Below are positions 10,925-13,900 of a stretch of 64,000 nt of DNA, piece by piece; positions within the stretch are counted from its first letter, which is position 1; every line of letters begins with the position of its first letter. The translations under genes were made by a program, and so were the position numbers. This DNA is from Mariannaea sp. PMI_226. Its lineage: Eukaryota; Ascomycota; Sordariomycetes; Hypocreales; Nectriaceae. The DNA is taken from assembly GCA_024336345.1 (NCBI GenBank), contig JANFOG010000001.1:930001-994000 (forward strand). The letters are read 5' to 3'. The notes beneath the pieces were generated by a model that saw only the letters and a program-made list of their open reading frames with translations, was not told where the DNA came from and made no database searches.

Positions 10925-13900
10925 TTAACCGAGGAAGCTCTTGACAAAGTTGCCGACAACCTCACGGAGCTTGGTCTCGGTCTCCTTGCTCAGGGCACCC
11001 TCCTTGTCAATGGTAGCAAGGAGCTCAGCCTCGTTGGTCTTGAGGTGGGCAAGGAAGTCAGACTCGAACTGGAGGATCTTGCCAACGGGGACGCTGTCAA
11101 GGAAACCGTTGACACCGGCGAAGATGAGAGGAACCATCTCGTTGACGGCCATGGGGGAGTACTGCTTCTGCTTGAGAAGCTCAGTCAGACGCTCACCACG
11201 GGCAAGGGTCTGCTTGGTAGCGGCATCAAGATCGGAACCGAACTGAGCGAAGGCAGCGACCTCACGGTACTGGGCCAAGAAAAGCTTCAGGGAACCAGCA
11301 ACCTGCTTCATGGCCTTAACCTGGGCAGCGGAACCGACACGGGAGACAGAAAGACCGACATTGATGGCAGGTCGGATACCCTTGTAGAACAGCTCAGCCT
11401 CGAGGAAGATCTGGCCATCAGTGATGGAAATGACGTTGGTAGGAATGTAAGCAGACACATCACCGCCCTGGGTCTCAATGACGGGCAGAGCAGTCATGGA
11501 ACCACCACCGAGCTTCTTGTTCATCTTGGCAGCACGCTCAAGAAGACGAGAGTGGAGGTAGAAAACATCACCGGGGTAAGCCTCACGACCGGGGGGACGA
11601 CGCAGAAGCAGAGACATCTGTCGGTAGGCAACGGCCTGCTTTGAAAGATCATCGTAGATGATCAGAGCGTGCTTTCCGGAATCACGAAAGTACTCCCCGA
11701 TCGATGCACCTATTGAATAGATTCATTAGTATGATGTTGAACATTATGATGCTGAACATGTTGATGTTTGATGATGGTTGATAGTAGCATATGAGGGTTG
11801 ACAGTTTCAAAATATGGTCGACAAGATGTTACGTAGTGAGACGTCTAGCAACGTCTACGCACTCGCGGCAGCAACTTTGCTGAGATGTTTCTTCGACTTG
11901 TTGTGTTTGTCGAGATGGCCTTTGATATTGAAGGCCTTGTCACAAAGAGAACAATAGAACGTCTTGAGTGCTCTGTGCTTGGCGGAGAAAATCCTTGATC
12001 TCATCGCCTCAACGGAGACAGGCTTTGCCTTGCCGCCGGCAGCGAGCCTGACTTGCTCTTGGTGGGCTTTGGTTTTGAGATGTTTGTTGAGAGCGGTGAT
12101 AGATTGTAGAGCAATGCCGCACGTCTGGCACTCATGTTTTCTGGACGCAATTGCACGAGCACGAACACCAGCGCCGATCTCCGAGACTCTGACTGGGTTG
12201 TTTTTGGTCCAGGCAAATTTTTCTTTGCGCTTCCTCGCAAGATAGGCTTCCAAGTCGTTGGCGCGTTGCTTGTCCTCACAACGTTTAGTTGCTATGGCCA
12301 TTTGCTCCTTCGCCTGTTGTTGACGTTCTGCATTGTATGCTTCAAGCTGTTCCGGTGTCATGTTGTGATCACCGGCCGGTTTTTCCATGAGCGCAGAATG
12401 GCTACAGAGAGGAAGCCATTCGACGGTATCTCTCTTCCATGGCAAAAAGACTGTCCAGAGAGCGTCGAGCTTTGTTTCAAACGCAGCGAAGAAGATGTAG
12501 GCAAAGACAGCTTCAATTGCCACAAATCGAAGACGGGAAGACGGAACCTGACCCGCTGGGGGGAGGGGAGCCCAGCAAAGTAGGCCCTTGTTTGTAATAG
12601 TGTAGCCCTTCTTGAGGGCTAATTCCATGTGGCGAGGGATCAATTTGCCTCGGTCGTAGCCATTGAGTCTGGCGTAGACGCCAGACTGAGCGTTGGTGCC
12701 AGAGCCGATGTAGATTTTTGCGATTGAACCAGGCTTCTCTAGGAGAACACAGTATACACCCCAGACTTTCTCTTCTGGAACCGGTGCTGGGAGAGAACGA
12801 AAGAAGTCGAGAGAGGGGGAGGAGGGGGACTGAAGGACGTCGAGAAGGGAGGGGGGGAAAGACAGAGGTGTAGCGGAACAAATCTTGTCAAAAGACGTTT
12901 CCTCTCCAAGGAACGTTTTGAAAAGGGGGCAGATGTACCACTCTGGTGCATCTACGGTCACAGTACACCAAGTGTAGCCGTCGATGAGCTGTCGCAAGGT
13001 GTCGAGTTGCGTCTCCATCGCTTAATGCTTCACGACGTGCTGTGACAAGGAAAAGGGGCGGACGACGCCCCTGAATGGCGAGATTTGAGGACATACTTTC
13101 CTCTAGGACGCGGAGGGAGGTGCGTCCTGTTGAAGGAAAGTGGTGAAGGTTTTGCATGGTTGGTAAAGGAAGGTGATGTAGTTGCACGCTTGACAAAGGA
13201 AAGTGGTGATGTAGTTGCTTGGTTGGCAAAGGAAAGTGGTGATGAAGTTGCACGGTTGGTCAAGTTGAAGGAGTTGAAGAAGGAACAGAGGAGAGAGTAT
13301 CCTTACCGGTGAAGGGAGCGATATACTGAAGAGGGGCGGCCTCGGAGGCGGTGGCAGCGACGACGATGGAGTACTTCATGGCGTCGTTCTCCTCAAGAGT
13401 CTTGACGAGCTGGGCGACGGTGGATCGCTTCTGGCCAACGGCGACGTAGACGCAGTAAAGCTTCTTGCTCTCGTCGCTGCCGGAGTTCCATCGCTTCTGG
13501 TTAAGGATGGTGTCAAGAGCGACGGCAGTCTTGCCGGTCTGACGATCACCAATGATCAACTCACGCTGACCACGGCCGATGGGAACCATGGCATCGATGG
13601 ACTTGAGACCAGTCTGGACAGGCTCGTTGACAGACTGTCGGGGAAGAATACCGGGAGCCTTGAGCTGAGCTCGGCGTCTCTCAGTGGTGTTGATGGGACC
13701 CTTGCCATCAATGGGGTTACCAAGAGCATCAACGACACGGCCAAGCATCTCAATGCCGACGGGGACATCGACCTTGCGCGAAATATCAGTACTGATCTAA
13801 TTCGTTTGGGGGCTAGAAATGGAGCAAGTCTTACAATCTGGCCGGTACGCTTGACGGTCTCACCCTCCTTGACCAGACGATCGGAACCGAACAACACAAC

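What the first reader, a model, noticed from the sequence alone, without database searches (positions are those of the whole stretch)
11710..13306. A homing-endonuclease gene inside a spliceosomal-type intron of nuclear atp1
The last atp1 intron is 1597 bases (others 62-224), has canonical GTAAGG/AATAG ends, and carries an intact same-strand 387-codon GIY-YIG ORF. Splicing restores the alpha subunit exactly. Homing endonucleases are well known in group I/II introns and inteins; a spliceosomal intron as carrier in an essential nuclear gene would be a different lifestyle, since the host spliceosome rather than a ribozyme would make the insertion harmless. I cannot say from memory whether this exact case has been reported.
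Basis: partly seen in the sequence, partly recalled or inferred. Interest (0 to 1): 0.95.

Follow-up and report, generated by a model that had tools for sequence, protein, structure and literature searches.

The report
Homing endonuclease in fungal spliceosomal intron
An essential nuclear gene of a fungus carries an ordinary-looking spliceosomal intron that encodes a DNA-cutting enzyme of the homing type, and relatives of it sit in the same gene, at the same spot, in other fungi, which suggests a selfish element that relies on the host's own splicing machinery.

The parts
11710..13306 (-). spliceosomal-type intron 5 of nuclear atp1 (1597 nt, phase 1 in codon 292), carrier of the endonuclease gene; single copy in the genome at DNA level
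   Evidence: gene model and junction; no Rfam group I/II match; DNA search of own genome finds only itself
11855..13018 (-). endonuclease ORF, 387 aa plus stop
   Evidence: ORF; relatives at 61-64% over full length
12491..12766 (-). GIY-YIG nuclease domain (residues about 85-176; invariant Y89, G105, S106, T108, R117, E169; Y103 nearly invariant)
12062..12136 (-). C2H2 zinc finger 1 (ligands C297, C300, H313, H319)
11885..11959 (-). C2H2 zinc finger 2 (ligands C356, C359, H372, H378)
   Evidence: PF12171 34.4 bits, cut-off 22.6
13301..13306 (-). 5' splice site GTAAGG
11725..11729 (-). branch-site-like CTAAT
11710..11714 (-). 3' splice site AATAG
13133..13274 (-). degenerate pyrimidine-rich minisatellite (spacings 30, 33, 33; four copies) between 5' splice site and ORF; possible promoter or spacer
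   Evidence: role inferred
13307..13772 (-). atp1 exon 5 (left side of presumed target, ends ...CCCTTCACCG)
10925..11709 (-). atp1 exon 6 (right side of presumed target, begins GTGCATCGATCG...)

Best explanation
This is a spliceosomal homing intron in a cellular genome. The 1597-nt intron is removed from atp1 mRNA by the host spliceosome, so that it costs the essential gene little. The protein it encodes (GIY-YIG nuclease domain, helical linker, two C2H2 fingers for DNA recognition) is proposed to cut atp1 alleles that lack the insert at the conserved APFTG codons, and repair from the carrier allele copies the whole intron in (homing). Different clades of the family serve different conserved genes (atp1 and SSB1 shown as clades; BiP and aconitase by one fused model each). 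Shown here: intron anatomy, intact ORF, fold and invariant residues, same-place relatives, gene-specific clades, discordance between endonuclease and host exon. Inferred: splicing in vivo, expression of the ORF, cleavage, copying by repair.
For: Restoration of Atp1; no group I/II model. I-TevI is the best structural match by VIA-align. Fused gene models leave Atp1 at the same place (T291, G292 or A293 by window numbering) in five other fungi: two Chaetothyriales, Verticillium, Cytospora, Parachaetomium; one of them (P0060) also re-enters at ASIGE exactly as the window does. SSB1: three of four fused models (P0058, P0063, P0064) resume at the same residue, P0037 about 11 residues further. Tree of 66 rows: 7 atp1-labelled rows one clade, 100/98; 4 SSB1 rows one clade, 99/98; 0 and 2 of 500 shuffles as low. 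Alternaria alternata versus A. arborescens: SSB1 exon 183/183 identical, endonuclease 61% over 245 columns. AU test against a single Sordariomycete clade p 0.040 and 0.035. Own genome: SSB1 intron of 307 nt at the same site without the ORF, uninterrupted aconitase and BiP, two decayed copies.
Against: No RNA or enzyme data. PF01541 scores 0 of 26 members at E up to 1, and Foldseek gave no match at E <= 0.001, so the fold call rests on VIA-align and motif residues. In P0073 and P0074 the predicted re-entry into Atp1 is some residues downstream, and P0007 and P0030 have no downstream Atp1, so the 3' edge is confirmed in one model only. Presence or absence of the intron at this site in close relatives could not be tested (no fungal DNA collection); unannotated intronic ORFs make patchiness unmeasurable from proteins. 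The AU p values are modest and the groups were named after the tree was seen; the Cytospora-Chaetothyriales grouping is starred in one tree (96/95) but not in the smaller ones (90/81; 91/92). The two cpa2-named relatives fall in different halves of the tree.
Confidence: 0.82

Rival explanations
1. An old spliceosomal intron at this position was present first; a free-standing GIY-YIG/zinc-finger gene landed in it once and has been inherited vertically, kept for some host function (domesticated nuclease) rather than by homing.
For: The HEG-free SSB1 intron at the same site in the window's genome could be the ancestral, never-invaded state; endonuclease identities among atp1 carriers (46-65%) are compatible with deep divergence of a fast gene.
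Against: Alternaria pair: identical host exon, 61% identical endonuclease. Chaetothyriales copies group with Cytospora rather than apart from Sordariomycetes (weak). Decayed copies in the own genome do not look like an essential gene.
Confidence: 0.1
2. A degenerate self-splicing (group I or II) intron that now depends on host factors, still carrying its endonuclease.
For: GIY-YIG endonucleases are classic passengers of group I introns (recalled).
Against: No group I/II match in Rfam even at E up to 10; GTAAGG...CTAAT...AATAG is spliceosomal; the exon base before the intron is G, not the U usual for group I (recalled rule); the 5' end is not GUGYG of group II (recalled rule).
Confidence: 0.03
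3. The ORF is a retained, coding region: alternative splicing makes an Atp1-endonuclease fusion or the intron is really coding sequence.
For: Automatic annotation of relatives reads it as such a fusion (P0007, P0030, P0060, P0073, P0074).
Against: In the window the exon-5 frame meets a stop about 15 residues into the intron, so no in-frame fusion; the Atp1 core would be interrupted.
Confidence: 0.03

Closest known systems
Spliceosomal homing introns ('shintrons') of mirusviruses (PMC12768974, Nat Microbiol 2025; abstract, passages and section 9 read)
   Same: GT-AG spliceosomal introns that encode GIY-YIG (and other) endonucleases, lack group I/II signatures, sit in conserved key genes, and show target-gene specificity.
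   Different: Those are in viral genomes; [quoted passage not shown] Here the carrier is a fungal nuclear housekeeping gene and the protein is a GIY-YIG plus C2H2 family. Two pattern scans of IMG/VR found no relative; whether that collection holds these mirusvirus genomes I did not check.
I-TevI and other GIY-YIG homing endonucleases of group I introns
   Different: Carrier intron is spliceosomal, host is a nuclear protein gene; two C2H2 fingers.
Nuclear homing elements of fungi: inteins (VMA1, PRP8) and His-Cys endonucleases of rDNA group I introns (recalled; PMC9548176 seen only in a search listing)
   Same: Homing endonuclease genes kept in conserved nuclear genes and made harmless by splicing.
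   Different: There removal is by protein splicing or ribozyme; in PMC9548176 (title) spliceosomal introns lie inside the endonuclease gene, the reverse arrangement.
Introners / introner-like elements
   Same: Mobile spliceosomal introns.
   Different: Introners multiply as similar copies at many sites and carry no endonuclease (recalled); here the intron DNA matches only itself in the own genome.

Membership tests
Spliceosomal homing intron (shintron) | canonical spliceosomal donor, branch and acceptor sites with restoration of the host protein | tested here: met
Spliceosomal homing intron (shintron) | encodes an endonuclease of a homing superfamily | tested here: met
   invariant motif residues, I-TevI-like fold; PF01541 itself did not score
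Spliceosomal homing intron (shintron) | no group I/II intron signature | tested here: met
   no match at gathering scores in the window and none of group I/II among the five matches at E up to 10 in the intron region
Spliceosomal homing intron (shintron) | target-gene specificity of the endonuclease | tested here: met
   atp1 and SSB1 clades among 16 labelled of 66 rows; the cpa2-named pair is not one clade
Spliceosomal homing intron (shintron) | spliced in vivo by the spliceosome | not testable with these tools
   no RNA data
Spliceosomal homing intron (shintron) | moves into intron-free alleles by cleavage and repair | not testable with these tools
   only comparative signs: Alternaria discordance, AU test
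GIY-YIG endonuclease | beta-hairpin, helix, beta, helix core with GIY and YIG motifs, catalytic Arg and Glu | tested here: met
   assignment of Y89, Y103, R117, E169 to catalytic roles is by position and recalled knowledge
GIY-YIG endonuclease | match to Pfam PF01541 profile (a detection aid rather than a definition) | tested here: inconclusive
   0 of 26 members at E up to 1; one relative, P0011, bears the UniRef name GIY-YIG domain-containing
GIY-YIG endonuclease | DNA cleavage | not testable with these tools
   no enzyme data
Group I intron | ribozyme core | tested here: not met
Group II intron | domain V/VI and GUGYG 5' end | tested here: not met
   5' end GTAAGG
Introner | several similar intron copies in the genome | tested here: not met
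   whole-intron DNA search of the own genome returns only the locus itself (simple repeats and very common words are skipped by that search); protein searches gave one intact and two diverged decayed copies
Penelope-like retroelement (GIY-YIG + reverse transcriptase) | reverse transcriptase | tested here: not met
   no RT in the 387-aa ORF by Pfam; only 433 nt of the intron lie outside that ORF

The most novel reading that the evidence does not exclude
Fungal nuclear genomes host a whole family of spliceosomal homing introns, each lineage aimed at one conserved codon of a housekeeping gene, spreading across species and classes; when the endonuclease gene decays, a plain spliceosomal intron is left behind (the SSB1 intron of this genome would be such a remnant). 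Homing would then be a source of new spliceosomal introns in eukaryotes.
Probability: 0.45. Interest if true: 0.95.

Novelty: new variant of a known kind. Interest (0 to 1): 0.88.

Why it matters
Homing elements in essential genes are known with self-splicing carriers (ribozyme or intein; recalled). A selfish gene that uses the host spliceosome needs none, and is open to every intron-bearing eukaryote. It would extend the mirusvirus shintron to cellular genomes, give a testable route by which new spliceosomal introns arise at conserved sites, explain some odd fused gene models in public fungal annotation, and supply a set of natural nucleases specific for conserved nuclear genes. Because named carriers are fungi with sequenced genomes, the mechanism is directly testable.

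Tried and rejected

Rows dropped: the tree used 66 of 75 rows (left out: P0011, P0017, P0025, P0031, P0033, P0068, P0069, P0077 as chimeric, short or distant, and P0041 as under 185 residues). Three weak hits were removed before that: P0070, which holds a short family-like piece (E 1.3e-11), and P0071 and P0072, probably zinc-finger matches only. Of the host labels, atp1 for P0014, cpa2 for P0020 and P0050 and pck1 for P0076 rest on record names only. The first run of Pfam over the 26 members printed 25 of 72 families; I scanned the other 25 members one by one afterwards.

Full report
What is there. The window lies in a 42.2-Mb, 25-contig genome, inferred to be a filamentous ascomycete; in a six-row tree its Atp1 lies with Cytospora, Parachaetomium and Verticillium, apart from two Chaetothyriales, so it is probably a sordariomycete. 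The minus-strand atp1 gene has six exons; the five introns are 224, 116, 65, 62 and 1597 nt. The large one, 13306-11710, interrupts codon 292 in phase 1, begins GTAAGG, has CTAAT 20 nt before its end and ends AATAG. Joining the exons gives a 552-aa alpha subunit collinear with yeast-type Atp1 across the junction. Rfam finds nothing at gathering score in the whole window, and nothing of group I or II type in the intron region at E up to 10. The intron DNA matches only itself in the own genome.

The family. Three searches of 5.8 billion proteins gave 45, 64 and 13 hits (in the last two only about 8000 candidates were scored), 77 different ids. P0071 and P0072 (a plant protein) are probably zinc-finger matches only, and P0070 a chimeric fragment. 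All other hits that bear an organism name are fungi, by recalled taxonomy all Pezizomycotina. Because intronic ORFs are seldom annotated, numbers are lower bounds. Some automatic gene models fuse host exons and endonuclease and so reveal the carrier gene. Five leave Atp1 at ...QY(I/L)APFT, with none, one or two further Atp1-like residues: Chaetothyriales CBS 134920 (P0007) and CBS 132003 (P0060), Verticillium albo-atrum (P0030), Cytospora paraplurivora (P0073), Parachaetomium inaequale (P0074). P0060 re-enters Atp1 at ASIGE, exactly as in the window; P0073 and P0074 re-enter some residues later, and P0007 and P0030 not at all, which I take for limits of gene prediction. Four have SSB1-type Hsp70 downstream; three resume at TFTTVADNQ (P0058, P0063, P0064), P0037 at TVQFPV. 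One has BiP (P0045) and one aconitase just before the QWDRRD segment (P0055). cpa2 (P0020, P0050), PCK1 (P0076) and atp1 in Claussenomyces (P0014) are by name only.

Signs of mobility. In a tree of 66 of 75 rows, 16 labelled and 50 not, the seven atp1 rows are one clade against the other labelled rows (100/98) and the four SSB1 rows another (99/98), with unlabelled rows inside both; 0 and 2 of 500 label shuffles do as well; the two cpa2-named rows do not group. A. alternata and A. arborescens, both in section Alternaria, have identical SSB1 residues after the insert (183 of 183) but endonucleases only 61% identical over 245 columns; the A. arborescens protein is as close (61% over 263) to an unnamed metagenome protein, P0042, and 99% identical to another, P0059. 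This is hard to get by descent and points to separate arrivals at one site. Among atp1 carriers, the Chaetothyriales copies group with Cytospora (96/95; 90/81 and 91/92, not starred), while host Atp1 separates them with 100/100; forcing the Sordariomycete copies together is rejected weakly (p 0.040 with the window, 0.035 without), and the groups were chosen after seeing the tree.

The own genome. Protein searches with the window ORF and with three relatives found the intact copy, a decayed copy at C12:3713777-3714172 and a more decayed one at C1:2411399-2411710. Its SSB1 gene has a 307-nt intron without the ORF at precisely the residue where three of the fused models re-enter SSB1. BiP and aconitase are uninterrupted around the corresponding places. 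Occupied, endonuclease-free, decayed and empty states thus coexist in one genome, as in the gain-decay-loss cycle of homing elements (recalled general model). Whether the SSB1 intron is a remnant or the older state is open.

How it most likely works. The spliceosome removes the intron, so the insertion is tolerated. The protein, expressed from its own promoter or from unspliced transcript (unknown), cuts the uninterrupted atp1 allele in a mated or fused cell, and repair copies the intron. The site lies in a stretch conserved to yeast; [quoted passage not shown]

Known or new. The mirusvirus paper (PMC12768974; [quoted passage not shown] My searches of the open-access library (listings only, 20 of 35 papers shown and 15 of 18; passages of PMC11889510 read and not relevant) showed no paper that reports a cellular case. 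bioRxiv and most subscription papers were not searchable, so an unseen report is possible. I therefore call it a new variant of a known kind: the first cellular, fungal, housekeeping-gene version that I could find, with its own protein family. By sequence it was not linked to viral ones.

Verdict. Observation confirmed; interpretation supported; homing itself inferred at about 0.8.

Noticed in passing
own genome C1:2404021-2404327 (L024:4022-4328): SSB1 has a 307-nt intron at the very residue where fused models of other fungi re-enter SSB1 after an endonuclease; it contains short pyrimidine-rich repeats reminiscent of, but not alignable with, the minisatellite of the atp1 intron.
   Followed up: partly
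own genome C12:3713777-3714172 (L004:3741-4742, minus): Decayed, nearly full-length family member in what looks like an intergenic stretch between an asparagine-synthetase-like gene and a C2H2 regulator gene (gene names from reading the ORFs); closest to P0035 (37% over 297).
   Followed up: partly
own genome C1:2411399-2411710 (L025:2897-3358, minus): A second, more decayed family member about 6.5 kb from SSB1; best matches P0056 and P0064, both in the SSB1 clade.
   Followed up: partly
window 13133-13274: Four degenerate copies of a roughly 33-nt pyrimidine-rich repeat between the 5' splice site and the endonuclease ORF; two upstream ATGs in the intron share one frame that ends inside the ORF (89 and 68 codons).
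   Followed up: partly
P0011 (Colletotrichum chrysophilum): One gene model holds two endonuclease-like units in tandem, so a host gene may carry two elements or a duplicated one.
   Followed up: no
P0020, P0050, P0076, P0014 (public records): Proteins named cpa2, PCK1 or F1 alpha subunit that consist wholly of endonuclease-like sequence: likely annotation errors caused by such introns, and pointers to further host genes.
   Followed up: no
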